64,000 nucleotides of DNA from Prostheceraeus crozeri (Eukaryota; Platyhelminthes; Polycladida; Euryleptidae). The stretch is taken from the NCBI GenBank assembly GCA_907163375.1, contig CAJQUW010005305.1:62001-126000 (forward strand), read 5' to 3'. The notes under the pieces are model-generated. The model was not told the DNA's origin and ran no database searches. It saw only the letters and a program-made list of their open reading frames with translations. Of this stretch, positions 3,001-64,000 are shown piece by piece. Each line of letters begins with the position of its first letter. Position 1 is the stretch's first letter. Both the position numbers and the translations under genes were made by a program.

Positions 3001-5268
3001 CAGCCAGCACGAGTTTCTGCAGGGAACGAGGCCGACAATGAGACTTTCACAGAATGATGTGCACCTCATAGTCCGGCAGCCCGCACGAGTTTGTGCAGGG
3101 AACGAGGCCGACAATGAGACTTCCACAGAATGATGTGCACCTCATAGTCCGGCAACCAGTACCAGTTTGTGCAGGGAACGAGGCCGACAATGAGACTTTC
3201 ACAGAATGATGTGCACCTCATAGTTCGGGAGCCAGTACGAGTTTGTGCAGGGAACAAGGCCGACAATGAGACTTTCACAGAATGAAGTACACCTCATAGT
3301 CCGGCAGCCAGCACGAGTTTGTGCAGGGAACGATGCCGACAATGAGACTTTCACAGAATGATGTGCACCTCATAGTCCGGCAGCCAGCACGAGTTTCTGC
3401 AGGGAACGAGGCCGACAATGAGACTTTCACAGAATGATGTACACCTCATAGTCCGGCAGCCAGCACGAGTTTCTGCAGGGAACGAGGGCGACAATGAGAC
3501 TTTCACAGAATGATGTACACCTCATAGTCCGGCAGCCAGCACGAGTTTCTGCAGGGAACGAGGCCGACAATGAGACTTCCACAGAATGATGTGCACCTCA
3601 TAGTCCGGCAGCCAGCACGAGTTTCTGCAGGGAACGAGGCCGACAATGAGACTTTCACAGAATGATGTGCACCTCATAGTCCGGCAGCCAGCACGAGTTT
3701 GTGCAGGGAACGAGGCCGACAATGAGACTTTCACAGAATGATGTACACCTCATAGTCCGGCAGCCAGCACGAGTTTCTGCAGGGAACGAGGCCGACAATG
3801 AGACTTTCACAGAATGATGTGCACCTCACAGTCCGGCGGCCAGCACGAGTTTCTGCAGGGAACGATGCCGACAATGAGACTTTCACAGAATGATGTACAC
3901 CTCATAGTCTGGCAGCCAGTACGAGTTTCTGCAGGGAACGAGGTCGAAAATCAAGCTTTCACAGAATGATGTACACCTCATAGTCCGGCAGCCAGTACGA
4001 GTTTGTGCAGGGAACGAGGCCGACCATGAGACTTTCACAGAATGATGTGCACCTCATTGTCCGGCAGCCAGCACGAGTTTCTGCAGGGAACGAGGCCGAC
4101 AATGAGACTTTCACAGAATGATGTGCACCTCATAGTCCGGCAGCCAGCACGAGTTTCTGCAGGGAACGAGGCCGACAATGAGACTTTCACAGAATGATGT
4201 GCACCTCATAGTCCGGCAACCAGTACGAGTTTGTGCAGCGAACGAGGCCGACAATGAGACTTTCACAGAAAGATGTGCACCTCATAGTTCGGGAGCCAGT
4301 ACGAGTTTGTGCAGGGAACAAGGCCGACAATGAGACTTTCACAGAATGATGTACACCTCATAGTCCGGCAGCCAGCACGAGTTTCTGCAGGGAACAAGGC
4401 CGACAATGAGACTTTCACAGAATGATGTGCACCTCATAGTCCGGCAGCCAGCACGAGTTTGTGCAGGGAACGAGGCCGACAATGAGACTTTCACAGAATG
4501 ATGTACACCTCATAGTCCGGCAGCCAGCACGAGTTTGTGCAGGGAACGAGGCCGACAATGAGACTTTCACAGAATGAAGTACACCTCATAGTCCGGCAGC
4601 CAGCACGAGTTTGTGCAGGGAACGAGGCCGACAATGAGACTTTCACAGAATGATGTACACCTCATAGTCCGGCAGCCAGCACGAGTTTGTGCAGGGAACG
4701 ATGCCGACAATGAGACTTTCACAGAATGATGTGCACCTCATAGTCCGGCAGCCAGCACGAGTTTCTGCAGGGAACGAGGCCGACAATGAGACTTTCACAG
4801 AATGATGTACACCTCATAGTCCGGCAGCCAGCACGAGTTTCTGCAGGGAACGAGGCCGACAATGAGACTTTCACAGAATGATGTGCACCTCATAGTCCGG
4901 CAGCCAGCACGAGTTTCTGCAGGGAACGAGGCCGACAATGAGACTTTCACAGAATGATGTGCACCTCATAGTTCGGGAGCCAGTACGAGTTTCTGCAGGG
5001 AACAAGGCCAACAACGAGACTTTCACAGAATGATGTACACCTCATAGTCCGGCAGCCAGCACGAGTTTCTGCAGGGAACGATGCCGACAATGAGACTGCC
5101 ACAGAATGATGTGCACCTCATAGTTCGGCAGCCAGCACGAGTTTGTGCAGGGAACGATGCCGACAATGAGATTTTCACAGAATGATGTGCACCTCATAGT
5201 TCGGCAGCCAGCACGAGTTTGTGCAGGGAACGATGCCGACAATGAGACTTTCACAGAATGATGTGCAC
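1..5268 (+). repeat. 76-bp tandem repeat array, left arm
   Basis: About 69 head-to-tail units of 76 bp; a unit begins AGACTTTCACAGAATGATGT and ends near GGAACGAGGCCGACAATG. Units differ at a few recurrent positions (GTAC/GTGC after ATGAT, TTTGTGC/TTTCTGC, GATGCC/GAGGCC). Because 76 is not a multiple of three, short open frames recur with the repeat and are not genes. Blocks of many units recur identically at distances that are multiples of 76, which shows multi-unit amplification. Confidence 0.97.
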
Positions 5269-5840
5269 CCTATGCCTACTACGAATCGGCACGTCTGCCG
5301 AGTTCTAGTGAGTTCTTCTTCCTGTCAAGGAAAAGCACATGTAAATGCAATGGTGCGCAGATTGCAGTTTCTGGTTAAAATGAAATTTCCCATGTTTTCT
5401 CTTATCAACTGAAAAGTATTAAGTCTAGATTCATAATTTTCGACATGGAGTGTCTTCAGGTAATTTTCGTTCTTTTTCATGCACCCCTGTCTATAAAGCT
5501 AGGCACATTTTGATTTGAGTGAGCCTCTTAATGTCGTCAAACACAAACATTTTGCGCAATTTTTCAACTTTCAACCACATTCTCACATACATTGCCGATC
5601 AGAAGCATGAAAAAACACATGCACATAATAGGAAATGACCTGGAGACATTCCATGTCAAAAATTATGACTCTGGGCCTAGTGCGTTTCGTTCAATCAGAG
5701 GAAACATACAAAATTTCATTTTAATCAGAAACTGCAATGTGCGCCCCAATGGATTTACATGTGTTTTTCTTTGATCCTGTCTGACAAGAAGAGGATCCCA
5801 CTAGAACTCGGCAGACTTGCTGATTCGTAGTAGGCATAGG
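5269..5840. repeat. Foldback hinge: diverged inverted unique arms around a loop
   Basis: Just inside the left array, about 5269-5495 is unique DNA whose reverse complement, by eye roughly 75-80 percent identical, lies at about 5605-5840 just before the right array. Matching landmarks are CCTATGCCTACTACGAATC at 5269 and its complement near 5822-5840, and ACATGTAAAT near 5338 and its complement near 5755. The central loop of roughly 100 bp (about 5500-5600) is not repeated. No convincing ORF lies here. Confidence 0.85.
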
Positions 5841-7503
5841 GTGTACATCATTCTGTGAAAGTCTCATTGTCGGCATCGTTCCCTGCAGAAACTCGTACTG
5901 GCTGCCGAACTATGATCTGCACATCATTCTGTGAAAGTCTCAAAGTCGGCATCGTTCCCTGCACAAACTCGTGATGGCTGCGGGACTATGAGGTGTACAT
6001 CATTCTGTGAAAGTCTCATTGTCGGCATCGTTCCCTGCAGAAACTCATTCTGGCTGCCGGACTATGAGGTGCACATCATTCTGTGACAGTCTCATTGTCG
6101 GCCTCGTTCCCTGCAGAAACTCGTGCTGGCTGCCGAACTATGAGGTGTACATCATTCTGTGAAAGTCTCATTGTCGGCCTCGTTCCCTGCAGAAACTCGT
6201 GCTGGCTGCCGGACTATGAGGTGCACATCATTCTGTGAAAGTCTCATTGTCGCCCTCGTTCCCTGCACAAACTCGTGCTGGCTGCCGGACTATGAGGTGT
6301 ACATCATTCTATGAAAGTCTCATTGTCGGCCTCGTTCCCTGCAGAAACTCGTGCTGGCTGCCGGACTACGAGGTGTACATCATTCTGTGAAAGTCTCATT
6401 GTCGGCCTCCTTCCCTGCAGAAACTCGTGCTGGCTGCCGGACTATGAGGTGTACATCATTCTGTGAAAGTCTCATTGTCGGCCTCGTTCCCTGCAGAAAC
6501 TCGTGCTGGCTGCCGGACTATGAGGTGCACATCATTCTGTGAAAGTCTCAAAGTCGGCATCGTTCCCTGCACAAACTCGTGCTGGCTGCCGGACTATGAG
6601 GTGTACATCATTCTGTGAAAGTCTCATTGTCGGCCTCGTTCCCTGCACAAACTCGTGCTGGCTGCCGGACTATGAGGTGTACATCATTCTGTGAAAGTCT
6701 CATTGTCGGCCTCGTTCCCTGCAGAAACTCATGCTGGCTGCCGGACTATGAGGTGTACATCATTCTGTGAAAGTCTCATTGTCGGCCTCCTTCCCTGCAG
6801 AAACTCGTGCTGGCTGCCGGACTATGAGGCGCACATCATTCTGTGAAAGTCTCATTGTCGGCCTCGTTCCCTGCTCAAACTCGTGCTGGCTGCCGGACTG
6901 TGAGGTGCACATCATTCTGTGAAAGTCTCATTGTCGGCCTCGTTCCCTGCAGAAACTCGTGCTGGCTGCCGGACTATGAGGTGTATATCATTCTGTGAAA
7001 GTCTCATTGTCGGCCTCGTTCCCTGCACAAACTCGTGCTGGCTGCCGGACTGTGAGGTGCACATCATTCTGTGAAAGTCTCACTTTCGGCCTCGTTCCCT
7101 GCAGAAACTCGTGCTGGCTGCCGGACTGTGAGGTGTACATCATTCTGTGAAAGTCTCATTCTCGGCCTCGTTCCCTGCAGAAACTCGTGCTGGCTCCCGG
7201 ACTATGAGGTGTACATCATTCTGTGAAAGTCTCATTGTCGGCCTCCTTCCCTGCAGAAACTCGTGCTGGCTGCCGGACTATGAGGTGTACATCATTCTGT
7301 GAAAGTCTCATTGTCGGCCTTGTTCCCTGCAGAAACTCGTACTGGCCGCCGGACTACATCATTCTGTGAAAGTCTCATTTTCGGTCTCGTTCCCTGCACA
7401 AACTCGTGTTGGCTGCTGCCGGACTATGAGGTGTACATCATTCTGTGAAAGTCTCATTGTCGCCCTCGTTCCCTGCAGAAACTCGTGCTGGCTGCCGGAC
7501 TAT
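5841..7503 (-). repeat. 76-bp tandem repeat array, inverted right arm
   Basis: About 22 units of the same 76-bp repeat in the opposite orientation (a unit reads CATCATTCTGTGAAAGTCTC on the plus strand). One unit near 7350 is shortened and another near 7405 carries a 3-bp expansion. The array ends at 7503 with GCCGGACTAT, after which the sequence becomes unrelated. Confidence 0.95.
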
Positions 7504-8160: not shown

Positions 8161-9126
8161 GACTAAGACACGTATATTACACTGCTTTTACTTCTGCAGA
8201 TCATCGCTTCTCTGAACGACTTGTGAGGAAGAAAACAACGGGCAGGCTACAACTACTTGACAAAGATGATGTAAGTGGATTTTATATCAATTGTACAGCT
8301 TATTCTGATTATTTTGTGCTTTATTCTAGAGGATTGAAAACTGGTTAATTATTAACCATTTCTTTCATTAGGGAGGATTTTGTACATTCTTCTATAGTTG
8401 TATCTGCCAAAGAAAGATAAATTATTATTAAAAGTCTCCTTCACCTATTTTTCCCACAATCTGATGCACTGTCATTCGGCATCAAAGGTACACTTTGACT
8501 ACGCATTTTCCACTTGTAATTCAGACTATGTGATTTGTACTTCAGGAGATAAAATTTGTATTTAAAAAAATCCTTTTTCTGGGTACTGATTCCGCCGGTA
8601 TGCTCATTTAAATATCTTATATGTCAGACGGCAGTCACAGCCTTATTTATGCCTGATTGCTTTACGAGAACAATAGAAAGGCCCTATGTGTGATCCACAA
8701 CAACATTGACCATCTGTTTTTAGTTTTTTGTCGAATTACTTACAACTGTGGCCCTCTCACCTTATCAAATCTTGACATTCGTTGATCTAAAGGTTTTCCG
8801 CTATCCAAGTATTCGAATGATTTGATTCATTATTTAATGGTATTCGCAATGTGCTTGGAACCTAATTATTTATCATGATGACGAGATCTGTCGTTCTGAC
8901 ATGTGTGTTGTGTTGACTATAAATATGGCTACTAATATATGCATGTAATAGAGACATTAAGAATTTTTTTCTTAGGGCGTTACCCCAGATGGTGAAATCT
9001 ATTTTTCAGTCAGGAAAAGCACATTATCTCCTATTTCTCAAATTAAGATTTGAAAATGTTTTATTGCTGTTATGTGATTTATAATGCTACACATATTTTC
9101 TGACAACACTAAAAAATCAGGCCTAC
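8161..9126. other. No recognisable gene
   Basis: AT-rich DNA with many stops in all frames. I see no repeat structure or coding signal. Confidence 0.6.
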
Positions 9127-9545
9127 TTAGAGGAAGTCAAGAAAATAGTCAACAGGAATGTCCTGTAACTGCAAAGCAGCTTCGTAAAATGTGGTGTGCT
9201 GAGCAGCTTTCGCGCAGTCCCTTGCCGTCATGATACTTCTACCATCACTCACCAGACGTTCGAGGTACTGAAGTATTTGTTCTCCCAGTCCTCGTACGTC
9301 AACTACCAGAACTTGCATATTTGACTTGACGAGTGCTTACAGTTTCGACCAGACATCTTCGATCGCATTAAGCATCGGACTGTAAGGAGCTATGTATAGG
9401 AGCTTTGCCCCAGAATCCTCGAACAAGCGGGAGAGACAAGGCGCATTATCCACAACTGCTTTCAGTTCCGATAACTCAAATGTCTGTCTCCATTCACTTA
9501 AAACTTCCTCCATCCATCACGGGATATTGAACAGAATCGCTCTTC
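9127..9545 (-). pseudogene. Tc1/mariner (IS630-type) transposase C-terminal fragment
   Basis: The minus strand from about 9545 down to 9127 reads in one frame, apart from a stop near 9331, as the end of a DDE transposase. It has the VVDNAPC motif (second catalytic Asp, near 9450), then LYIAPYSPMLNAIEDVWSKL with the catalytic Glu, followed by an alpha-helical tail ending DYFLDFL. The Asp-Glu spacing is 29 residues rather than the usual 34 or so, so some residues are deleted. The N-terminal DNA-binding region and first catalytic Asp are not found. This is a dead fragment of a cut-and-paste transposon. No inverted repeats or TA duplication are visible around it. Confidence 0.75.
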
Positions 9546-10209: not shown

Positions 10210-10232
10210 AATCCAAAATTCAATGTCAGTTC

Positions 10233-12239
10233 CGAAATACAAATCTTATCTTCTGAATCAAAATCATATCTTCTGAAATACAAATCTTATCTTCTGAATG
10301 CAAATCATATCTTCTGAAATACAAATCTTATCTTCTGAAATGCAAATCTTCATCTTCTGAAATACAAATCTTATCTTCTGAAATACAAATCTTATCTTCT
10401 GAATGCAAATCTGATCTTCTGAAATATAAATCTTATCTTCTGAATGCAAATCATATCTTCTGAAATGCTAATATTATCTTCTGAAATACAAATCGTATCT
10501 CCTGAATGCAAATCTTCATCATCTGAAATGCAAATCTTATCTTCTGAAATACAAATCTTATCTTCTGAAATACAAATCTTATCTTCTGAAATGCAAATCT
10601 TCATCTTCTGAAATACAAATCTTATCTTCTGAAATACAAATCTTATCTTCTGAAATACAAATCTTATCTTCTGAAATGCAAATCTTATCTTCTGAAATGC
10701 AAATCTTATCTTCTGAAATACAAATCTTATCTTCTGAAATACAAATCTTATCTTCTGAATGCAAATCATATCTTCTGAAATACTAATCTTATCTTCTGAA
10801 TGCAAATCTTATCTTCTGAATGCAAATCTTATCTTCTGAAATACAAATCTTATCTTCTGAAATGCAAATCTTCATCTTCTGAAATGCAAATCTTATCTTC
10901 TGAATGCAAATCTTATCTTCTGAAATACAAATCTTATCTTCTGAATGCAAATCTTCATCTTCTGAATGCAAATCTTCATCTTCTGAAATACAAATCTTAT
11001 CTTCTGAAATGCAAATCTTATCTTCTGAAATACAAATCTTATCTTCTGAATGCAAATCTTATCTTCTGAAATACAAATCTTATCTTCTGAATGCAAATCT
11101 TATCTTCTGAAATACAAATCTTATCTTCTGAAATACAAATCTTATCTTCTGAATGCAAATCTTATCTTCTGAATGCAAATCTTATCTTCTGAAATACAAA
11201 TCTTATCTTCTGAAATGCAAATCTTATCTTCTGAAATACAAATCTTATCTTCTGAATGCAAATCTTATCTTCTGAAATACAAATCTTATCTTCTGAATGC
11301 AAATCTTGATTTTCTGAATGCAAATCTTCATCTTCTGAAATACAAATCTTATCTTCTAAAATACAAATCTTATCTTCTGAAATACAAATCTTATCTTCTG
11401 AAATGCAAATCTTATCTTCTGAAATGCAAATCTTATCTTCTGAAATGCAAATCTTATCATCTGAAATACAAATCTTATCTTCTGAATGCAAATCTTCATC
11501 TTCTGAAATGCAAATCTTATCTTCTGAAATGCAAATCTTATCTTCTGAATGCAAATCTTCATTTTCTGAATGCAAATCTTCATCTTCTGAAATGCAAATC
11601 TTCATCTTCTGAAATACAAATCTTATCTTCTGAAATATAAATCTTATCTTCTGAAATATAAATCTGATCTTCTGAATGCAAATCTTCATCATCTGAAATG
11701 CAAATCTTATCTTCTGAAATGCAAATCTTATCTTCTGAAATACAAATCTTATCTTCTGAATGCAAATCTTATCTTCTGAATGCAAATCTTCATCTTCTGA
11801 AATGCAAATCTTATCTTCTGAATGCAAATCTTATCTTCTGAATGCAAATCTTCATCTTCTGAAATACAAATCTTATCTTCTGAATGCAAATCTTATCTTC
11901 TGAATGCAAATCTTATCTTCTGAATGCAAATCTTCATTTTCTGAATGCAAATCTTCATCATCTGAAATGCAAATCTTATCTTCTGAAATGCAAATCTTAT
12001 CTTCTGAATGCAAATCTTATCTTCTGAAATACAAATCTTATCTTCTGAATGCAAATCTTCATCTTCTGAAATACAAATCTTATCTTCTGAATGCAAATCT
12101 TCATTTTCTGAATGCAAATCTTCATTTTCTGAAATGCAAATCTTCATCTTCTGAAATACAAATCTTATCTTCTGAATGCAAATCTTATCTTCTGAATGCA
12201 AATCTTATCTTCTGAAATATAAATCGCATGGTCTGAAAT
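10233..12239. repeat. Minisatellite of 20/21/22-bp units, about 95 copies
   Basis: Tandem units of three main lengths: GAATGCAAATCTTATCTTCT (20), the GAAATACAAAT version (21) and a version with CTTCATCTTCT (22). They are intermixed without a simple order. Stops are rare in several frames on both strands, which creates long spurious frames of up to 221 codons (for example 11827-11162 on the minus strand). It starts 9 bp after the right target duplication of the LINE fragment and ends at 12239. Confidence 0.95.
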
Positions 12240-54193: not shown

Positions 54194-54577
54194 TTGCATA
54201 CTTCTCTTATATACTTACTTTGGTGTAAGATGTCGGCAGAGTTTGAACGCTGGCATGACTTTTGGCGACAGCAGCCATCGTCCAACCGATTGGAGCTCAG
54301 CTTGACGGAGGCGCTGAGAGAGTGTGATAAGAATCTCTATCCAAATGTACATAAACTCCTAACCATTTTTTTGATCACCCCAGTGACAACATGTACAGCT
54401 GAGAGATCTTTCAGCCTGCTTCGCTTACTTAAAACCCATCATAGGGCAATGATGGGCCAAACGCGTCTAAACGGACTCGCACTTCTGGCCGTTCACAAGG
54501 ACATTAAGTTGTGTTACGATTCCGTTGTACAGGAATATGCGAGAATATTTGATTCTCGATTGCGATTGATAGAATAA
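54194..54577 (+). pseudogene. hAT transposase C-terminal dimerisation domain
   Basis: The 127-codon frame contains SLTEALRECDKNLYPNVHKL, then LITPVTTCTAERSFSLLRLL, KTHHRAMMGQTRLNGLALL and AVHKDI. This is the hydrophobic dimerisation block typical of hAT proteins and of their domesticated ZMYM-like relatives (the T-A-E-R-S-F-S-x-L-x-x-L-K-T core). The domain begins around the internal ATG of MSAEFERWHDFW, preceded by an AG that could be a splice acceptor near 54240. The frame ends at 54577, about 330 bp inside the right terminus of the 44497-54904 hAT, so it is almost certainly the last exon of that element's transposase. Earlier exons with the catalytic residues are not found. Confidence 0.85.
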
Positions 54578-54912: not shown

Positions 54913-55979
54913 ACAGAATCAAGAAGGAAGTACCATTGCGAAGTGGAACTAAAAACAACTTTACAGAACCGAATAAAAGATTGGTTATAGCGTCGCGTCC
55001 TTGATAAGGGAGGCAACTATGCTGTTGATGAATGACAGGTATTTGCAGAAGCCGATCTAGGAGCAAATAGTTCGCAAAGTAGATCGGACGTTGATTTAAC
55101 AATTTTTTCAAAAAGTTTCAAACAACTTCTTAAGCAGGCCTTAAGCAGTAAGTCATTTTCACATCTTGCTCTACGTACAGTCGTAAATTTCGGAGAATGT
55201 GTATCCTCCTACCTTCTAGAGGCCTTTTTTACAACACAACTAATGTGTTCATTCCATTTAAGATTGTTAAAAAAGTAACACCCAGGAAAAGGAAAGACTG
55301 TGTACGACGTAGCATTGAGGTGGATGACAAAAAGATATCTTTCATTACGAGGTTGCTTATATCTATTACAAGCATGGAAGTGGATAATAGTACACTAGAA
55401 TGGAAGTTTGATATCTTGCCTATGTACAATGATGGCACATGGAAAAATCTATGGTTTGTAGATCAGATTCGATCTAAAACATTGTATCAAAGTGAAACTA
55501 TTTGCCAAGTTGGTTGTGGAAGTTGTGGAATTACAGGATTTTCATAATAGAATTGCAAGTGAGATGGCGGCATTGTTTTATGTGAAATAGCCTACTATTC
55601 CATGGATTAATATAGTGTGTCTATTTGTCTGACAACAATTTTCCAATATTGGAATGCGAATTAAAAATTGGTTCACAAAGTCATAATTGAAAGTGGTCGG
55701 TGTGCTGTTTCTAAGAACATCTGAAGAATTCACAGTTAGAAAGTCTAATTATTGGATACTTTCTTCTTCAAGCGCCTAAGAAACCTGGCGCTTTTCTGGA
55801 ATAAACACATTGAAAGTTTCTTTACCGACAATCATTTCTCAAATAAATGAAATGTCGCTGCAATTTTTCAATTAATCATTGAATGACACGTGCTATTTTG
55901 GAAGCTGATATTCGAATGCATGAAGAGATTTTGAAAATTTTTCAAATTTAGTGAACAGGGGATGCCAGTAATGGGAAAA
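54913..55979. other. Intervening DNA with dispersed repeat copy
   Basis: Contains the second copy of the ~130-bp repeat (55373-55503) inside an unrecognised 116-codon frame (55197-55547). No other signal. Confidence 0.5.
55373..55503 (+). repeat. Dispersed ~130-bp repeat, copy 2
   Basis: Matches 42318-42448 with about four differences. Read in frame it gives DNSTLEWKFDILPMYNDGTW, the same phase being open in the surrounding 116-codon frame, so it may be part of an unrecognised transposon ORF. Confidence 0.9.
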
Positions 55980-56415
55980 AGACCGTTACAGGACACCATA
56001 AAATTCAAAAAATAGTATCTTTAAAAACGACATAAATTCATGAATTTTGTCCCTTTTACAGGTTTTTAAGACCTAAATTCATAAATTTAGACCATTTAAA
56101 AAGTACCATTTTTTTAAAAACGACATAAATTCATGAATTTGAACCCTTTTTCAGGTTATGAAGACCTAAGTTCATAAATTTAGGCGTTTTTAAAAATTAC
56201 CAATTTTTCAAATTTTTCAAAATCTCAAATTTGAGAATTACAATTTTTACCTTGAAAATCATGACCGTTCCAGGACACCGAAAAAATCATAAAAGTTAAG
56301 AATCTCAAATTTGTGAATTACAATTTTCACCCCCAAAATCATGACCGTTCCAGGACACCGAAAATCATAAAAGTTGAGAATTTCAAATTCATGAATTTTA
56401 TCCATCTTTCAGGTT
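55980..56415. repeat. Subterminal tandem repeats with AT palindromes
   Basis: GACCGTTCCAGGACACCG recurs at 56263 and 56343 (80-bp period), with a variant at 55981. TTAAAAACGACATAAATTCA recurs at 56021 and 56114 (93-bp period). The perfect 14-bp palindrome AAATTCATGAATTT is at 56034-56047, 56127-56140 and 56385-56398, with related CTAAATTCATAAATTTAG at 56073-56090. The cluster lies just outside the first gene of the viral block, where terminal or subterminal repeats are expected. Confidence 0.8.
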
Positions 56416-56455
56416 TTTTAAAATATATCATGTGACTAATAATATTTCTTTAAAA

Positions 56456-56997
56456 ATGGATGAAGCAAAAGTAGAAGAAACCGCAAGAATATATCCTTCG
56501 TTATCACAGTTAAAAATAAGTGAATTGAATAAAGAAAAACACAAAGATAGAGTACGTTATATGAAAGATAAGGAATCTCAATTATTATTAAGATTAGAGC
56601 ATTATAAAAAATTAAGAAAGAGATGGACTAAAGTTAAGAATGTAACACAAGGAATTGGCATATTCTTAACAATAAGTTTAGGTGCTTTAACAATTGTTAT
56701 ATCTTCAGGTGTTTTAGTAATTCCAGTAGTTGCTACTGCTTTAACAGGTACGGGTGTTTTTGCAACTTCACTTGTTACAATGTTAGATAAATCTTTAATA
56801 ACTAAGAAACGAAAATCATTAAAAACTAAGCATTTACATATTAAAGAAGTCTATGAAACTACATTAGTACTTTCAAAAAGTATGTGATGATAATGTTATT
56901 ACGTTAGATGAGATTGAAAAATTTGATCAAATAGCTAATGAAGTAAATCAAACCTTTCAATTACAGTCCGAAAAAGTTGATGATTAGAATAAACAGG
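56456..56997 (+). pseudogene. Viral-block membrane protein with hydrophobic hairpin (one frameshift)
   Basis: The open frame spans 56432-56887. I prefer the second ATG (56456, AAAAATGG context, MDEAKVEETARIYP) because each neighbouring gene starts in an A-rich run. The N-terminal half is charged and helical (KDRVRYMKDKESQLLLRLEH). About residues 74-118 of the 56432 frame form two hydrophobic stretches rich in Gly, Ala and Thr (GIGIFLTISLGALTIVISSG, then VLVIPVVATALTGTGVFATS), a membrane hairpin. After SLKTKHLHIKEVYETTLVLS the frame breaks at an A-run near 56876. The next frame gives an acidic tail to the stop at 56995 (VITLDEIEKFDQI), typical of the end of this protein type. It is probably a virion or membrane-remodelling protein; no enzyme motif. 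The function is inferred only from context. Confidence 0.6.
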
Positions 56998-57233
56998 ATG
57001 GCAAAATTTCTGGTGATGGTAAATTTCTAGTGAAGAAAATGACAAAATTTTTTTAGAAGAGCTAAAAACTTTAAGCGAAAATTTAAGCAAAACTTTATTA
57101 AACAAAACTTAAAACCAGAAACCTTTAAACGAAAAGATGTAAGACAACAAAGCAATAAAAAAATAATTTGTTCAGTAAAATGTTTTTGTTGTATTCCAAT
57201 GTTACCACAAAATTCAAATATTATATTTTAAAA

Positions 57234-58067
57234 ATGGATAAAATTAAAGCTGATAATCAAAAAAGAATTAAACAATTAGAAGAGTTAATAAAACAAACAA
57301 ATATTATGAAAGAAAATCATCTTCAACATAGATTGATAAAAGCTGGTATTCAATCTGATATGTTTGAAAAAATGCAGCAAACCGAGCAAGTGAAAACTAA
57401 TTTTGAGAAAACTATGAAACCATTTAAAACTCTTGAAAAAGAAAGTACAAATAATGATAAACAAGTTGATATAACAGATCCAGAGCACAAAACTATATTA
57501 GATGACTATGGTTTACTAGAATCAAACATTAATAAGAAATTACCAAAATCTATGCAATTTGAACATTCTATTTCATTTATAGATGGAAAAACAATACCTA
57601 GATTTCATCTCGGACAAAAGGAAATATTTCCACAACCTTTTCGAGGTTTAATTTTTTCACCAGATAAATATCCTTTTAATTTAGATAGAAATTTTGTTGA
57701 TCTTTTAAGAGGAGCAGATTTAAATAATTATGCTGTAGAAGATCTCATAAAATATAAAGCTATGTTAGATAGAGTTGGTGCAGTAAAATCTCTAAGACGT
57801 TATAAACAATTAGAAAATTTATTATCAACGGGAGTTAAAGTAGGAAAAGGTTTTAAAACAGAAACAACTGTATTTTTACCAGATGATCCACAAGAATTAC
57901 TAAATAGATTAAATATTTTAATATCTGCAATAAAAGAAGGACATAATTCTAGTTTCAATGAAATTCATGCTATATTGAAAAGACTGTTAGAAAAGAAGAT
58001 TCTAAATGAAGAGGATTATAAAAGTATAACGGGACATCGGAGATGTCTTCCAGGGCTTCGCCCGTAG
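57234..58067 (+). CDS. Unassigned conserved protein of the viral block
   Basis: The frame opens at 57168, but the ATG at 57234 (TTAAAAATGG, MDKIKADNQKRIKQL) has the same context as its neighbours and is the likely start, giving 277 codons. The N-terminal third is a basic coiled coil (LEELIKQTNIMKENHLQHRL). A middle region has DYGLLESNINKKLP, QPFRGLIFSPDKYPFNLD and LRGADLNNYAVEDLIKYKAM. The C-terminal part (FLPDDPQELLNRLNILISAI, then LLEKKILNEEDYKSI) resembles a domain common in invertebrate virus-like loci. No catalytic motif is seen. A structural, virion-associated role is a guess from position. The last codons are encoded by a double GC-rich hairpin (58033-58063), so the natural C terminus was probably overwritten there. 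Confidence 0.65.
   Translation: MDKIKADNQKRIKQLEELIKQTNIMKENHLQHRLIKAGIQSDMFEKMQQTEQVKTNFEKTMKPFKTLEKESTNNDKQVDITDPEHKTILDDYGLLESNINKKLPKSMQFEHSISFIDGKTIPRFHLGQKEIFPQPFRGLIFSPDKYPFNLDRNFVDLLRGADLNNYAVEDLIKYKAMLDRVGAVKSLRRYKQLENLLSTGVKVGKGFKTETTVFLPDDPQELLNRLNILISAIKEGHNSSFNEIHAILKRLLEKKILNEEDYKSITGHRRCLPGLRP
58033..58063 (+). terminator. Double triloop hairpin at gene 3' end
   Basis: GACATC-GGA-GATGTC (58033-58047), then TTCCA, then GGGC-TTC-GCCC (58053-58063); the stop codon follows at 58065. Two GC-rich stems in otherwise very AT-rich DNA at a gene end suggest a 3'-end or termination signal, or a mobile palindrome. The role is inferred. Confidence 0.45.
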
Positions 58068-58132
58068 CTGAAATATGTTGTTGTTTTTAATTTTTTTTAT
58101 AAAAGACATTTATTCAAAATTTTAATTAAAAA

Positions 58133-58267
58133 ATGTGTTCAGCAGATTTAGACAAAATTAATAATCATTTAGAAAATTTGACAGAGATTTTGGGTTCATC
58201 AAAATTTAGTACGACGTTAAAAATTATAACAACTACTTCATCACACACTTGTAATTTAGAATTTTAA
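58133..58267 (+). CDS. Small 44-codon ORF
   Basis: Starts MCSADLDKINNHLENL with an A-run directly before the ATG, as at the neighbouring genes, after a TATAAAAG-containing leader (58098). The product is hydrophilic and Thr/Ser-rich toward the end (TTTSSHTCNLEF). It stops 24 bp before the next frame. It could be a real small viral gene or the detached start of the following gene. No family is recognised. Confidence 0.35.
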   Translation: MCSADLDKINNHLENLTEILGSSKFSTTLKIITTTSSHTCNLEF

Positions 58268-58290
58268 CAGACGGAAAATAGCTGCGAGTC

Positions 58291-58959
58291 TTGGTGGAAC
58301 CCATTCTACATTTGGAACAAAATAAAAATTATCAAATTGCATTGACTAGTTTCTCCACTTTTAACACTATTCAAAACGTTATCAAAGATGTGAATGACCA
58401 ATTTAGATATTCTACTGATAAAGGCAAAACGTGGAAAATACTAACTTTTCTTCCTGGTTCTTACGAAGTTGAATCAATATCAAATGAAATTAAGAGATAT
58501 TTAGGTATACCATTTAAAGATAAGAAACAATTACATTTTGCAGTTGAACCGGCAATTAATAAATTTTCTCTTACTTTAGACGAAAATCATCAAGTTGATT
58601 TTAATCATGATAGATCATTGTCAAAGCTATTGGGATTTAATAAACAAACCTATAGTCAAGGTTATCATTTAGGTGAGAAGATTCCAAAAATAACTGAAAT
58701 AAATTCAATTGTTGTACATTGTGACATTATTGAAGGAGGATATATAAATGGTAAATTGTCAAATTTAATATTCAGTTTTCCAGCTTTTACTGTACCCATT
58801 GGTTATAGATTAAATGTAATTCCACAAACATTAATATATTTCCCTATTACAAGAAAAACTATTAACAACATTAACATGAGAATCACTGATGAAAAAGGAC
58901 ATGAAATAAATTTTGGAGGTGAAGAGATTATGATAGATCTTTTGGTTCGAGAGGTATAA
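58291..58959 (+). CDS. Candidate beta-rich capsid (penton/minor capsid-like) protein
   Basis: A 222-codon frame directly preceded in frame by a TAG (58279). The first usable codons are TTG-GTG, with no ATG before the conserved start (VEPILHLEQNKNYQIALTSF), so the initiator ATG may have mutated. The protein alternates short beta strands: FRYSTDKGKTWKILTFLPGS, YEVESISNEIKRYL, SLSKLLGFNKQTY, IVVHCDIIEGGYINGKLSNL and TLIYFPI, with a final VREV. This resembles proteins repeatedly found beside packaging ATPases in invertebrate virus-like loci and is plausibly a jelly-roll virion protein. I cannot prove the fold. It sits 160 bp upstream of the ATPase on the same strand. Confidence 0.5.
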   Translation: MVEPILHLEQNKNYQIALTSFSTFNTIQNVIKDVNDQFRYSTDKGKTWKILTFLPGSYEVESISNEIKRYLGIPFKDKKQLHFAVEPAINKFSLTLDENHQVDFNHDRSLSKLLGFNKQTYSQGYHLGEKIPKITEINSIVVHCDIIEGGYINGKLSNLIFSFPAFTVPIGYRLNVIPQTLIYFPITRKTINNINMRITDEKGHEINFGGEEIMIDLLVREV

Positions 58960-59012
58960 ACTCCCGTTCGGGAGGTATAAACTCCCGTTCGAGAGTTATA
59001 AACTCCCACGCG
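58951..59012 (+). terminator. Triplicated 20/21-bp palindromic repeat at a stop codon
   Basis: Three tandem copies of GAGGTATAAACTCCCGTTCG (58951, 58971, 58992; the last diverged). CGGGAG (58969-58974) pairs with CTCCCG (58982-58987) across GTATAAA. The first copy contains the stop codon of the candidate capsid gene. It is followed by a pyrimidine-rich CTTCTT tract. A 3'-end signal is the likeliest reading. Confidence 0.5.
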
Positions 59013-59117
59013 AAGCTAGAGAAGTTTAATTTTCTTCTTCTTATTATTATTCTTCTTATTCTTCTTCTTTACAAACAAAAAATAAAAAAATTAAAAATAA
59101 AATTTTTTCATTAAAAA

Positions 59118-59885
59118 ATGAGTGAAGTACTACCATTAAATAAAAAAAAACTTAAATTTAATCATCATCCAAATTTATCTAATAAAGTTTTGTCAGTTAT
59201 TTGTGGAAGATCAGGATGTGGAAAAACATATCTATTATTTAAAATTTTAACGACTCCAAATTTTTTGGATTATAGCAATCTTATAATTTATACAACAACA
59301 GCAGAACAACCCGTCTATCAATTTTTAAAATATGGATTTGAAAATAATCTTAAAAAAACAGCAATTGCTTCATTATTTAAAGAATATGAAAAATCTGAAG
59401 ATGAAGAAGAAATAAGTTCGAGGTGTGAAGAAGCAGCAAAAAATAATCAGTTAGTTGAATCCAATAAAAATAAGCATATAAAGATACAATTAATAGATGA
59501 TAGTGGTAATATGCAAGATCCTAGTAAACTAGATAAAAGAGTGAAACATTGTGTAATTTTTGATGATTGTGTTAATGATAGAAATCAGTCAGTTCAGAGA
59601 AATTATTTCGCAAGAGGTAGACATAATAACTGTAGTGTTTTTTATTTAACACAAAGTATGTATTCATTAGACGGAAGTGTTATTAGAAAGAATGCAAATA
59701 TATTTATACTATTTGAAATAAATGCAAGAAACTTAAGTGATTTGTTAAGAGATTTATGTGTAAGAAATAAAGATGAATTTAAACAATCGTGTAACAATGC
59801 TTGGTCAAAAGATTATGGATTTATCACAATTAATATTGATAAAAAAATTCATGATGGAGTTATCGAACAATTGTTCTCTGACTAG
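59118..59885 (+). CDS. A32/FtsK-type genome-packaging ATPase
   Basis: 255 codons from an ATG in a long A-run. Walker A is GRSGCGKT (residues 30-37), Walker B is HCVIFDDC (144-151), followed by the GRH arginine motif (167-169) and the sensor-like YLTQSMYSL (176-184), then VIRKNANIFILFE. This is the order and spacing of the packaging ATPases of Polintons and nucleocytoplasmic large DNA viruses (vaccinia A32 relatives). It would pump the genome into preformed capsids using ATP. The frame is intact over its whole length and ends normally (VIEQLFSD). The stop codon overlaps the first of three hairpins. It converges with the polymerase gene, with about 160 bp between them. A kinase- or helicase-type P-loop protein is less likely given the GRH and TQS motifs. 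Confidence 0.88.
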   Translation: MSEVLPLNKKKLKFNHHPNLSNKVLSVICGRSGCGKTYLLFKILTTPNFLDYSNLIIYTTTAEQPVYQFLKYGFENNLKKTAIASLFKEYEKSEDEEEISSRCEEAAKNNQLVESNKNKHIKIQLIDDSGNMQDPSKLDKRVKHCVIFDDCVNDRNQSVQRNYFARGRHNNCSVFYLTQSMYSLDGSVIRKNANIFILFEINARNLSDLLRDLCVRNKDEFKQSCNNAWSKDYGFITINIDKKIHDGVIEQLFSD

Positions 59886-59921
59886 GCTTCGCCTCGAGGG
59901 GCTTCGCCCCGACTGAAAGTC
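59884..59921. terminator. Three consecutive triloop hairpins between converging genes
   Basis: AGGC-TTC-GCCT (59884-59894), GGGGC-TTC-GCCCC (59898-59910) and GACT-GAA-AGTC (59911-59921) lie end to end, starting in the stop codon of the ATPase. The same stem type (GGGC-TTC-GCCC) ends the gene at 58065. The intervening AT-rich DNA to 60046 has no gene. Suited to ending transcription in a convergent intergenic region; inferred. Confidence 0.5.
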
Positions 59922-60046
59922 GATACAAGATTTGTTTACTGAGTAATAAAAAATTTTTATACTGAGTAATAAATAATAAAATTTTTATTTTAGACTGATT
60001 TAAATAATAAAAATTTTTTTCTAGATTAAATAATAATAAATAAACT

Positions 60047-60468
60047 TTAAAAAGGTGAAGTAGTTATTCCATCAGGTAAAATTTTTCTTTTATCATCAAA
60101 TGGATCTAATGCTAATTTATGTTCTTCTTTTAAATACATTTCATGTTTCTTTGAATTAAGTCTATAATTGCATGCTGTTTTTATTTCATTATTAAATAAT
60201 ACATTTTTATAATCTTGAAATGTTATTTGATTAGCCACTGATGCCTTTGAAATTCCTTTTAATGTTTTATGTGTTTTAATATTATTAGTTGTATCATAAC
60301 AATAACATTTAGATTTTAAAAATATAGCTTCTGTTATGAAATCTTCATTTCCTAACTCATCTTTTACTTTACATAATTCTGAAGGGTGAATAAAATCTTT
60401 TATTTTATTAATTTCTTCATCAAGTGAAGAATTATACGGTATTGTTAATTCTAAGAAACAGAATCGGT
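60047..60468 (-). pseudogene. DNA polymerase B, segment 5 (C-terminal thumb)
   Basis: After a frame change beside the catalytic D-T-D-S box (near 60468), the open frame runs to the stop at 60047. It contains LTIPYNSSLDEEINKIKDFI, ELCKVKDELG, KTLKGISKASVANQITFQDY, ACNYRLNSKKHEMYL and KRKILPDGITTSPF. The K-x-L-K-G-I block and the Y-R-L segment after the palm are characteristic of the thumb region of Polinton-type polymerases, and the R-K-I-L-x-D-G-I end is the usual C terminus. So the 3' end of the gene is complete. Confidence 0.8.
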
Positions 60469-61500
60469 ATCTGTAAAGTGTAATTTATAGTTTTTGCCAT
60501 AAGCAGGTGCTAAATAATCATATATAAATCTATACATAAATAGTTTAGCTAATTCTAATATAGTGAATCCAATAAAATTAAACTTATCATGTTTTACGCT
60601 AATTCGACGTAAATGTACAGCACATAGTTCATCACTAAATCTAGTAGTTCGTTTATATGTAGGTTTCCTTGTTGAATTTTGAAACCTATCTTTATCATAA
60701 ACTATTTCAATATTTTGTCTATTACGCACATTTTCTAAAGTCTTACCATAAAATGCATTATTCATTAATTTGAAGAACACGTTTCCAGAATCATCTTTAT
60801 TTCTTTTAGCTATTTTACTTTTTTCAATATTGAACTCTATATAATTTTTTAACCACCTAGATTTTTGATAAAATAGTTTCTGTTGTATTTTGGTGAGAAT
60901 CATTCCATGTTCTAAATGCCAATCTAGCATTCTCCCTTCAACAACATACTTTCCTTTATTACTTTGTGTTAACATAAGTTTTTTTGTTGGTCTGTATTTT
61001 TTAGGCATTATAGATTTTTGATAATCTGAAAAATCTTCTATATTGGGAATTTTGTTTTCGGGACAGAAAGGAAAATATTTTGTTTTATCTTTTATTTCAT
61101 CAGGATATACTAAATCAACTTCATATATATAACCATGATTATTTTCACCATCTAATGTAGGTTCGTATTCAAGAATATTACTCCATTCCATTTCACCTGT
61201 TGGTAATTCTTGTATCATGCAAGAAGAATATAAGCTATTAAAATCATAATATAACAAATAGTTTTCTCTCATGATTTCATCAACTGCTGCTTGACTATCT
61301 TCATTTGATATAAGTCCTTCTATATTTTGATTAAACAATTTTATAAATTGAGCTTTTTCTTCTGGATTTAAAATTTTTAAATAACCATAATCATCAGGAT
61401 TTACTTTCTTATTGTAACACTGTACATAACGATTACCTAAAACTGATGAAACTCCACCTCTAATTCCAGATTCAAAAAATAATAATTTATCATATGCATT
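60451..61500 (-). pseudogene. DNA polymerase B, segment 4 (palm: motifs A, B and C)
   Basis: The frame is open from about 61500, although the first listed start (61338) is only a TTG. It contains ESGIRGGVSSV upstream, then LLYYDFNSLYSSCM (motif A, metal-binding Asp), the TPR-like region (YRPTKKLMLT), KLMNNAFYGKTLENV (motif B, K-x3-N-x2-Y-G) and HFTDTDSV (motif C, catalytic D-T-D) at the very end, where the frame breaks. Motif A reads S-L-Y-S-S where Polinton polymerases usually have S-L-Y-P. All catalytic aspartates are present. It belongs to the DNA_pol_B_2 group, enzymes that replicate linear genomes by protein priming. Confidence 0.9.
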
Positions 61501-62090
61501 TTTTTATAATGTTTAAGTTTAACGGAATTTGTCCTAGAGCCATCGGCTTGAACACCAGTATGTTTTAATCCTGCTAACCATGTTAAACTTGGTGTAGAAT
61601 AACAATAACATGGATCTATTCCGTAATATTCTAAACACATATCACGAAGGTTTTCGAAAAGATCAGCTAGTATTAATACATCTATCTGTAGATATTTCAT
61701 TGTATAATCATACATTGTTCTACAATTTAACTCTCTCCAATTTTTTTCAGCTTCTGCATAATCTTCTTCAGATAATTGTGATTGTCTTAATGTTGATTTA
61801 AATTTATTTATTGGAGGAAGTTGTTTTTCTTTCATAATTTTATTCACAGAGTTAAAATCTCCAGTTATATATTCATACGGAAATATTCCTTTTAAAAGTT
61901 TTAAATTATATTTATCTAATATTTTACATTGTTCAGGTTTCAAAGTTTTTCCCATAACATGTAATGAATAAGGAGTAAAAAATCTAAATGCATCTAAAAT
62001 TCTAATGCAACCTAATTGCATTGAAAAATATTCTTCTTCTGTTTTACATAGTACATTTATTTGTTGTTGTTGTAATTTTTCAGATGAAAA
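61437..62090 (-). pseudogene. DNA polymerase B, segment 3 (exonuclease III region)
   Basis: In frame from about 62090. It holds MQLGCIRILDAFRFF, YITGDFNSVNKIM, RTMYDYTMKYLQIDVLILAD (ExoIII motif, Y-x3-D type) and DPCYCYSTPSLTWLAGLKHT, the segment leading to the palm. The frame breaks near 61500 in a run of seven T. Between HTGVQ and NSVKLK the sequence ADGSRT is encoded by a short GC-rich hairpin (61538-61548), discussed with the palindromic repeats. The proofreading exonuclease would be functional if the frames were continuous. Confidence 0.85.
61538..61548 (-). repeat. GC-rich triloop hairpin inside polymerase (encodes ADGSR)
   Basis: AGCC-ATC-GGCT on the plus strand, preceded by CCTAGAG. 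It shares the CTAGAGCC.TCGG core with 62591-62602 and 62249-62257. Confidence 0.6.
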
Positions 62091-62244
62091 AAATCTTTCA
62101 TTACTAGATGGAAATCATATTTAGAACCATTGTGGAAATATAGAGGAACAAAGTTATATTTAAATTTATTAGCATTAAGATTACAAGAATTATGTGCTGC
62201 ACCTCTATATAATCCATTTAGATGATCATGATCTTTTACTTTGT

Positions 62245-62264
62245 CGGCAGAGCCGTCGCTTCGC
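62245..62264 (-). repeat. GC-rich triloop hairpins inside polymerase (encode SDGSAD)
   Basis: CGGC-AGA-GCCG (62245-62255) followed by GC-TTC-GC (62258-62264), within the zinc/endonuclease module between C-x2-C and D-H-D-H. Confidence 0.6.
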
Positions 62265-62578
62265 TTATCATTACCCAATTCTTTTCCACAGTAAAAACAT
62301 TTTGTTTCATTAACAAAATTAATTTTTTCTTCATCCGTTAATGGAAGCATTGGTATATTTGTTTCAAGCAATTGTGAAAAATAATTTTGTAATTCTTCTA
62401 CTTTCTTTGTAAACATTTCTGAGCTATCTTCACCATAGTATTGATAATATTTTGATTTAAATAATTCAGAATGATTTGAATGAATGTACATTCCCCAACA
62501 TAATGGTTTTTGTTCAAATAAATATTTTTCTTTACTTTGTTCAGGTGCAATTTTTTCATAATTATCATTTTCAGAATC

Positions 62579-62602
62579 GGGCGAAGCCCTAGAACCTTCG
62601 GT
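62579..62602 (-). repeat. GC-rich double triloop hairpin inside polymerase (encodes EGSRASP)
   Basis: GGGC-GAA-GCCC (62579-62589), TAGA, then ACC-TTC-GGT (62594-62602). The minus strand reads GGGC-TTC-GCCC, the same stem that ends the gene at 58065. Confidence 0.65.
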
Positions 62603-62769
62603 ATGATTTTGTGTCATATTAACATTATATGCTTCAAAATCACAATAAATAGTAAAGGGTACTTTATTTTTCAAATACCATTTATTATATTCTAAATAAT
62701 CATCTTTTGGAAATGTGTTTCTGACTGCTTCATTTTGTTGACAATTCTCCAAATGTCTATTCATTTCTT

Positions 62770-63999
62770 CTAAAGTTCTAAAACTTGCATACATTGAAGA
62801 CAAGGAAAATTTGTATTATCTGAAGATATAGTAAATATAGAAACATCTTTACACAATATAAAATGACCCTGATAATATAATATATTCGCTTGTGCTGGTT
62901 GCTTTGTTTGTTTTAATTTTTCAAATTTATCTTGATATATTTCATGTGTTTCATCAATTTCTTTTGTAAGATTAAATGTATTTCGATGAAAATTTTGATT
63001 TAATATTTGTAGCTGATAAATATATTCTTTATCATATTGTTCTTTATATTGTTGTTGACATTTTTTTAAACATTCATTTATTTTTTGATTGGTTTCATTT
63101 TCTTCATTATTTAATTCTTTATTGTCTTTATTTAATTCTTGAATCGTTTCTATCTTATTTTGATATTTATGGCCATATTCTTGTACTAATATTTTTGTTT
63201 GTTGTTGATAATCTGTTTTACATTTTCGTAAACTTTCATTTAAATTTTGTAATTTTTGTTGATATTCTAAAGATAAAGATAAATAATCGGAATAATAATC
63301 ATAATTATAATTACGTCCTTTATAATTATTATGATTAATCATTATTGGTGATAGTGTTTTTATAATTTCAAATTTTTCAGTACATATTATATTTCCTTGG
63401 TAAAAAATATTATCATGCATGTAATTTCCTCTATCATTATATACTATTTCTGATTGACATAAATTTTTATTATTCAAATAAATTTTTTTTGAATCTGAGT
63501 AAAATGGAGTAATATTACCAATAGAAACATAATTCACATTTAATTCAAAAACATTTACTTCTATTAAATTTTTATTCTCTTTATGAAACTTTTTTAACCT
63601 ATTATAATCATATGGAAATTCATGTAAGCCATCAGAGTGATCAAATTCATTTTTGTATTCTTCTTTATTGTAATGTCTTAGTCTTTCTTTATGATATTTT
63701 GCAGGATGTAAATGTGCTATAATACTCCACAGAAAACAATAATCATCTTCATTTTTTATGTTGATTATTTGTGGTGAACTGAAAGGCAAAGGAACATAAC
63801 TACCACCAGTATTATTTTTATATTTATCAATTACTATTTTCTTAGATAGTATTTTAACAAATCTCCAACCAGATTCACGTAACTGGGCTTCAATTATACA
63901 ATTTTCTAATTTAAGTATCATTTGTTCAAATATGGGTTGTATATCATTTACATTATGAATTTCTTGTGAATTTGTACAATGTCCTTGTATTATTTCTTC
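62770..63999 (-). pseudogene. DNA polymerase B, segment 1 (N-terminal domain, extends past window)
   Basis: The first ATG in view is at 63921, but the frame stays open to the window edge (63999), so the true start lies outside. It has LRESGWRFVKILSKKIVIDK, GGSYVPLPFSSPQIINIKNE and DDYCFLWSIIAHLHP, the conserved N-terminal region of invertebrate Polinton-type polymerases (R-x-S-G-W, then S-Y-x-x-L-P, then the D-D-x-C-F-x-W block). Next come FPYDYNRLKKFH and NLIEVNVFELN. About residues 213-340 then form a Gln/Lys/Asn/Glu-rich coiled coil (for example KCKTDYQQQTKILVQEYGHK). The domain resumes with YYQGHFILCKDVS and FPCLQC, the first zinc pair, where the frame breaks near 62785. This coiled-coil insert is unusual for the family. 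Confidence 0.85.
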
Positions 64000-64000
64000 A

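What the first reader, a model, noticed from the sequence alone, without database searches (positions are those of the whole stretch)
55980..64000. Integrated dsDNA virus-like / Polinton-like gene block with no integrase in view
Compact AT-rich block: packaging ATPase (GRSGCGKT, VIFDDC, GRH), protein-primed-type polymerase B with an inserted zinc/endonuclease motif, a hydrophobic-hairpin protein, a beta-rich candidate capsid protein and an unassigned conserved protein. The motifs are seen directly; family assignment of ATPase and polymerase is established knowledge; the virion roles are inference. The gene set, with convergent ATPase and polymerase, could represent a little-described animal virus lineage rather than a standard Polinton.
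Basis: partly seen in the sequence, partly recalled or inferred. Interest (0 to 1): 0.8.

Follow-up and report, generated by a model that had tools for sequence, protein, structure and literature searches.

The report
Polinton provirus with swappable gene cassettes
The stretch is half of an old, broken copy of an integrated animal virus (a Polinton) whose capsid and integrase genes lie just past the window edge; the same genome holds many close copies in which the polymerase gene has been swapped or the capsid gene block turned round.

Summary
The block is real: it is the left half of a Polinton (Maverick/adintovirus-type) provirus. The "missing" integrase is a window artefact. In the next 11 kb of the contig lie a double-jelly-roll capsid protein (PF21738, E 1.2e-15), a protein joining a parvovirus-type phospholipase A2 to an rve integrase, a protease candidate and the second inverted repeat; the element spans 18.0 kb. 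This copy is decayed: polymerase in four frames, capsid gene with an in-frame stop, integrase frame broken, no target-site duplication. The host genome (2.05 Gb) holds many relatives: 134, 104 and 141 listed loci for capsid, PLA2-integrase and polymerase, all lower bounds. Three features go beyond a standard Polinton. (1) Two deeply diverged polymerases (25% identity over 252 aa) sit at the same site between the same neighbours, in opposite orientation, in elements with capsids at least 95% identical. (2) PLA2 and integrase share one open frame in 14 of 15 loci where both were seen, and 100 of 120 listed database homologues carry both domains. (3) The capsid cassette occurs in both orientations, between spacers of small palindromes; the tree needs three orientation changes, at least two on well-supported branches. 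Mechanisms are inference. Verdict: new variant of a known kind.

The parts
55967..56354 (+). Left terminal inverted repeat; starts AGTAATGGG; its partner is at C4409:135602-135992 (L010:702-1092, opposite strand), 81-82% identical; built of internal tandem repeats
   Evidence: internal repeats
56456..56887 (+). Conserved small protein with a hydrophobic stretch (143 aa here; 241 aa from first Met in copy L022); function unknown
57180..58067 (+). Conserved 295-aa protein, predicted mostly helical at low confidence; function unknown, not shown to be a capsid protein
59118..59885 (+). Packaging ATPase, A32-like
   Evidence: 79-98% identical per aligned piece in other copies
59898..59910 (.). GC-rich hairpin GGGGCTTCGCCCC just after the ATPase stop, near the border of the exchanged polymerase segment
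60451..61272 (-). Type-W DNA polymerase B, palm part (piece of a broken gene)
61437..62021 (-). Type-W DNA polymerase B, middle part (piece)
62057..62794 (-). Type-W DNA polymerase B, part with Endonuclease_7-like zinc motif (piece)
62770..64000 (-). Type-W DNA polymerase B, N-terminal part, open frame running on to L009:1644 (outside the window)

Best explanation
The block is the left half of a decayed Polinton-type provirus of 18.0 kb (C4409:117967-135992) in an animal genome. Shown: inverted repeats, ATPase, type-B polymerase, double-jelly-roll capsid protein, PLA2-integrase protein, and many near relatives in the same genome. Inferred: the element replicates by its protein-primed polymerase, packages its DNA with the ATPase into double-jelly-roll capsids, uses the PLA2 half of the fusion to pass a membrane during entry and the integrase half to insert. 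Also inferred: related elements present together in one nucleus recombine in the AT-rich and palindromic spacers between genes. This would have replaced one polymerase gene by a distant one in a single step (shown: identity stops 18 bp before the end of the ATPase frame and resumes just past the stop of the gene on the other side) and would have turned the capsid cassette round between inverted copies of the palindromic spacer (shown: both orientations; the recombination itself is not shown).
For: Gene set beyond the window; inverted repeat at both ends. Swap: window and L031 are 98.0% identical over 735 bp of ATPase, then share only short matches (26-91 bp), then are 81.7% identical over 1039 bp at the next gene; the polymerases between are 25% identical over 252 aa, E 8e-7, and with 22 and 28 relatives fall in two clades of 23 and 29 (FastTree supports 1.0 and 0.98, midpoint root). 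Layouts: polymerase W opposite in strand to the capsid gene in 6 of 6 pairs, polymerase A on the same strand in 2 of 2. Fusion: one open frame in 14 of 15 loci; 104 listed loci at 96% identity or more; 100 of 120 listed homologues carry both domains. Capsid cassette reversed in 3 of 20 capsid copies first placed and in 13 of 20 further loci that I chose; one clade of reversed copies is rejected, p-AU 0.00025.
Against: No 6-bp target-site duplication (GATGCC against TATATG). The protease is assigned by eye only: Pfam, PDB sequence search and fold search gave no significant match (model of mean pLDDT 52.9). A vertex (penton) protein was not identified. Orientation of the capsid cassette mostly follows subfamily, so it is not shown to be a switch; gene conversion between copies could mimic repeated inversion. 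A single polymerase swap is not rejected (p-AU 0.19, 8 rows). No relative found in IMG/VR for capsid, ATPase or PLA2-integrase and two weak ones for polymerase A, so no free virus form is shown.
Confidence: 0.8

Rival explanations
1. A standard Polinton, nothing more: the two polymerase types mark two old element lineages, and likeness of capsid and ATPase is due to later gene conversion rather than a polymerase exchange.
For: Orientation of the capsid block mostly follows subfamily (13 of 14 chosen copies at 96% or more to L017 reversed, 0 of 6 at 95% or less); gene conversion is plausible among many copies; a single W clade on the capsid tree is not rejected.
Against: The exchanged segment is the polymerase with its spacers, identity falling from 98% to almost none at its border, and capsid and integrase go with either polymerase at 95-96% identity or more. 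Conversion of all genes but one would be the less simple account.
Confidence: 0.15
2. A little-described integrase-less animal virus lineage.
For: No integrase was seen in the part of the window that belongs to the element.
Against: An rve integrase (PF00665, E 7e-8) follows in the same element, before the second inverted repeat.
Confidence: 0.02
3. The mixed layouts are partly assembly or nesting artefacts: elements inserted in or beside each other.
For: Some loci clearly hold more than one element (two capsid genes in L015; inverted repeat followed at once by an ATPase fragment in L019); one of 5 polymerase-A/integrase pairs has another spacing.
Against: The spacing is constant: 7.70-7.92 kb in 6 of 6 W/capsid pairs, 5.01-5.07 kb in 2 of 2 A/capsid pairs; reversed cassettes recur on many contigs.
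Confidence: 0.1

Closest known systems
Sf Maverick 1 and 2 of Spodoptera frugiperda (PMC5803895; passages read)
   Same: ATPase with A32-like match, rve integrase, PLA2 domain, ORF compared with adenovirus protease, polymerase B with a weak Endonuclease VII match
   Different: There PLA2 is at the N-terminus of a separate CAP frame; here it is fused in front of the integrase. No polymerase exchange is mentioned in the passages I saw
Vertebrate Mavericks (PMC8097293; passages read)
   Same: Polymerase, ATPase, integrase, capsid and protease genes, inverted repeats
   Different: Those are reported with generally conserved architecture and mostly low copy numbers; here three layouts and 134 listed close capsid loci sit in one genome; the window copy has no 6-bp duplication
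Adintoviruses, incl. mixed Alpha/Beta pairings of Hexon and PolB (PMC11071296; passages read)
   Same: Mixed pairings of polymerase and capsid lineage are known between viruses; integrase and hexon-type capsid present
   Different: Here the exchange is seen between near-identical elements in one genome with readable borders; whether A and W equal Alpha and Beta was not tested
Polinton lipases (PMC4642659; passage read)
   Same: States that some Polintons encode lipases closest to the parvovirus PLA2
   Different: Does not, in the passage read, speak of a fusion with the integrase

Membership tests
Polinton/Maverick | Terminal inverted repeats of some hundred bp, about 15-20 kb apart | tested here: met
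   388 bp of the left end aligned at 81.8%, ends 18,026 bp apart; the 15-20 kb figure is recalled
Polinton/Maverick | 6-bp target-site duplication | tested here: not met
   GATGCC / TATATG in this decayed copy; other copies not tested. The feature is taken from PMC8097293 (passages)
Polinton/Maverick | Type-B DNA polymerase | tested here: met
   PF03175 over cut-off; protein priming itself not tested
Polinton/Maverick | Retrovirus-like (rve) integrase | tested here: met
   PF00665 E 7e-8 in this element, 33.1 bits against a cut-off of 32.6
Polinton/Maverick | Packaging ATPase | tested here: met
   PF04665 23.8 bits, cut-off 22.8
Polinton/Maverick | Double-jelly-roll major capsid protein | tested here: met
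   PF21738 E 1.2e-15
Polinton/Maverick | Adenovirus-type cysteine protease | tested here: inconclusive
   His/Asp/Cys pattern seen by eye and invariant in 4 copies; no significant family or fold match
Polinton/Maverick | Minor (vertex) capsid protein | tested here: inconclusive
   160-aa protein next to the capsid gene has only a weak Adeno_PX match, E 0.011, below cut-off
Adintovirus | PolB with N-terminal OTU-like domain | tested here: inconclusive
   No Pfam OTU match up to E 1 in the type-W frame of L033 (which runs off the fetched stretch) or in type A; a fold comparison was not made
Adintovirus | Hexon recognisable by BLASTp against reference adintoviruses | not tested
   No reference adintovirus sequence was at hand; the IMG/VR scan found no relative of the capsid protein
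Adintovirus | Integrase with C-terminal chromodomain | tested here: inconclusive
   No Pfam match in this family; PF00385 is listed for P0116, P0118 and P0119 among homologues

The most novel reading that the evidence does not exclude
One animal genome carries a recently amplified pool of endogenous viruses that works as a recombining population: polymerase and capsid genes are cassettes bounded by AT-rich or palindromic spacers; polymerases of two distant lineages are interchangeable behind the same capsid, and the capsid cassette turns over repeatedly. The PLA2-integrase is a bifunctional virion protein that couples membrane passage to integration, perhaps cut at a conserved Gly-x-Gly in its linker by the element's own protease.
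Probability: 0.3. Interest if true: 0.7.

Novelty: new variant of a known kind. Interest (0 to 1): 0.5.

Why it matters
Mixed pairings of capsid and polymerase lineages have been reported between viruses (PMC11071296, passages). Here both versions exist side by side in one genome with 98% identical DNA on one flank, so borders, direction and number of exchanges can be studied directly. The PLA2-integrase fusion suggests that integrase may enter the cell with the virion, a question that bears on how Polintons spread as viruses or as transposons. Many copies with open capsid, integrase and polymerase frames in one genome give a large sample for such tests.

Tried and rejected
Rejected: absence of integrase (window edge only); the 295-aa protein as capsid protein (the capsid protein is elsewhere; its own model is low-confidence and mostly helical). 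Considered and weakened: an adenain-type cleavage site [MIL]xGxG (pattern recalled) in the PLA2/integrase linker. The element has LFGQG, but the strict patterns occurred in only 6 of the 49 homologues whose linker could be delimited; 52 of the 101 used could not be, and 19 of 120 were dropped as under 380 aa. Only the two glycines are conserved (invariant and nearly invariant in 20). Considered: a capsid orientation switch; orientation mostly follows subfamily, so I speak of repeated reversal, not of a switch. Led nowhere: scans of IMG/VR with capsid, ATPase and PLA2-integrase (none) and polymerase A (two weak matches, not followed); PDB sequence searches; NCBIfam (nothing over a cut-off; the integrase comes nearest to IS481, E 1.3e-10); folds of the protease and the 295-aa protein (two clan-CE type proteases, NopD and OtDUB, stand among the insignificant matches). 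The host was not identified: COX1 has TGA codons inside and reads well in the invertebrate mitochondrial code (other codes were not compared); mollusc is only a guess, from Lottia among the named matches of polymerase A. Literature: searched open-access papers only; passages were read in eight of them; the founding adintovirus paper was not held.
Full report
What was given.

The window. It is C4409:62001-126000 of a 2.05-Gb genome in 14165 contigs. The ATPase (59118-59885, +) matches Pox_A32 at E 3.5e-5; the polymerase lies on the minus strand in four frames from 60451 to past the window end, with PF03175 at E 2.4e-10 and 3.4e-8 in two pieces and Endonuclease_7 at 1.1e-4, slightly under its cut-off. 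The genes at 56456-56887 and 57180-58067 have no family match above cut-off but recur in other copies. GC is 0.24-0.28 from 56001 on.

Beyond the window. The next stretch (L009 = C4409:125001-134900) holds: the start of the polymerase (to L009:1644, minus); two minus-strand frames of 305 and 173 aa without family; a coiled-coil frame (3566-4048, plus; called x160 here); a short frame (x91); the major capsid protein at 4871-6208 with one in-frame stop, whose longer piece matches the double-jelly-roll domain PF21738 at E 1.2e-15; a 160-aa protein (weak Adeno_PX, E 0.011); one frame with a phospholipase A2 domain (PF08398, E 6.3e-10) followed by an integrase core (PF00665, E 7e-8), then a frame break and the integrase C-terminal part; and a minus-strand frame with an adenain-like His/Asp/Cys pattern, seen by eye. 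Polymerase, capsid gene and integrase of this copy are thus all interrupted.

Ends. The left end, window 55967 onwards, is an inverted copy of L010:702-1092 (C4409:135602-135992), 388 bp of it aligned at 81.8%. Both begin AGTAATGGG; the six bases outside are GATGCC and TATATG, so there is no target-site duplication. The element spans 18,026 bp. With the broken genes this marks an old or rearranged copy.

Other copies. Searches of the same genome listed 134 capsid loci at 95% identity or more to the window element (the window's own included), 132 of them without a stop in the matched part; 134 loci for a second capsid type, at 91% or more to L017; 104 PLA2-integrase loci at 96% or more to L019; 141 polymerase loci of the window's type at 93% or more, many in open frames near 1500 aa; and 88 core matches of the Pfam polymerase search (counted from the table). 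These tables hold only the best candidates, so they are lower bounds.

Polymerase exchange. The eight polymerase loci cut out do not match the window's polymerase pieces at E 1e-4 although their ATPases are 79-88% identical per aligned piece to the window's (the best BLASTP match of the pieces to those polymerases has E 0.03). I call them type A and the window's type W. L031 shows type A at the very site of type W: 98.0% identity over 735 bp up to 18 bp before the end of the ATPase frame, only short matches of 26-91 bp over the polymerase stretch (the longest, 74% and reversed, falls in the 173-aa frame), then 81.7% over 1039 bp at the 305-aa gene. The two polymerases are 25% identical over 252 aa (E 8e-7). 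Their database relatives form two clades (22 and 28 picked from 62 and 108 long enough, out of 120 and 120 listed, plus the two of this genome; midpoint root). Copied hit coordinates give 6 of 6 W/capsid pairs on opposite strands 7.70-7.92 kb apart and 2 of 2 A/capsid pairs on the same strand 5.01-5.07 kb apart; W/integrase 2 of 2 opposite; A/integrase 4 of 5 at 6.8-7.4 kb downstream and one with another layout. Few pairs are seen because each table holds only its own best rows. The capsid genes behind W (L036, L037) and A (L034, L035) are 96.3-97.6% identical in DNA to that of the window and lie with it in one clade. A single exchange is not rejected (p-AU 0.19; in that tree of 8 copies the polymerase of L011, L016 and L018 was taken from their contigs). 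In a third layout, type A is convergent with the ATPase as W is here (L001-L008), with capsids at about 84% DNA identity.

PLA2-integrase. PLA2 and integrase matches lie together in 15 loci (L009 by Pfam; 14 others); a motif search finds both in one open frame in 14 of them. The fifteenth, L016, has the two matches side by side and in phase but was not listed by the motif search. Three of the 14 (L009, L017, L018) have shortened frames. In the database 1208 proteins match; of the 120 listed, 100 carry both Pfam domains by my count of the table. In 20 aligned members H93, D94 of the PLA2 part and D212, D270, E300 of the integrase part are invariant (that these are the catalytic residues is recalled). 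Papers: PMC5803895 has PLA2 in a separate CAP frame (passages); PMC4642659 mentions PLA2-like lipases in some Polintons (passage). Of searches (17 papers; 60, 15 listed; 10) I read passages of seven papers and none of the rest; no report of the fusion was seen, which is weak evidence, in an open-access library.

Capsid cassette. In 3 of 20 capsid copies the block of x91 plus capsid gene is reversed against its neighbours (L017, L018, L021). Of 20 further loci chosen by me over the identity range (134 listed), 13 are reversed and 7 are not: 13 of 14 at 96% or more, 0 of 6 at 95% or less. On a tree of 26 capsid genes (20 plus 6 fetched of those 20 loci) the label needs 3 changes, at least 2 by well-supported branches; reversed copies as one clade are rejected (p-AU 0.00025), and a reversed and an unreversed copy are sisters (L062, L060; support 94/98, not starred). 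I named the group after seeing an earlier tree, and gene conversion could give the same picture. The spacers on either side are rich in small palindromes such as GGTTAGTAACC, GGACCTTTGGTCC and GGCTAAAGCC, in both orientations, in the 7 loci printed; in L009 the two spacers share a 39-nt inverted repeat. Strict GC-rich hairpins number 1 in the window piece and 5 in L009, against means of 0.02 and 0.14 in 50 shuffles; 4 of these 6 are intergenic. Recombination between these inverted copies is the simplest cause of reversal, but it is inferred.

Conclusion. Known kind: Polinton. New in the variant: cassette exchange of polymerases at one site, capsid cassette in both orientations, PLA2-integrase fusion as a rule in the loci seen.

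Noticed in passing
window 1-5269 and 5840-7503: A 76-bp satellite in two arrays (69 and 22 copies) whose consensus units look like reverse complements of each other by eye, so two head-on arrays.
   Followed up: no
window 10230-12239: A 21-bp tandem repeat, 96 copies, where the strongest GC skew of the window lies.
   Followed up: no
window 54230-54577: C-terminal piece of a hAT transposase (PF05699, E 7.5e-12) just left of the provirus.
   Followed up: no
L010:1554-2552 (-): Frame that looks by eye like a piggyBac-type transposase, just right of the provirus (no family search).
   Followed up: no
L009:8347-8835 and 9002-9247: The protease candidate has a partial second copy beside it, 73% identical over 93 bp, a local duplication.
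   Followed up: no
L009:3566-4048; L011:7849-8637; L018:4281-5015: The coiled-coil gene beside the capsid cassette starts, in the longer frames, with a stretch that reminds me of phage tail-fibre N-terminal repeats (recalled); a candidate fibre protein. Pfam gave only weak coiled-coil matches under cut-off.
   Followed up: partly
L015: Two capsid genes of the two types (96% and 81% to the window's) within 10 kb, so elements lie side by side or nested.
   Followed up: no
P0122: A JGI metagenome protein of 1168 aa is 97% (BLASTP) to 100% (alignment) identical to polymerase A of this genome: the host or its virus may have been sampled in a metagenome.
   Followed up: no
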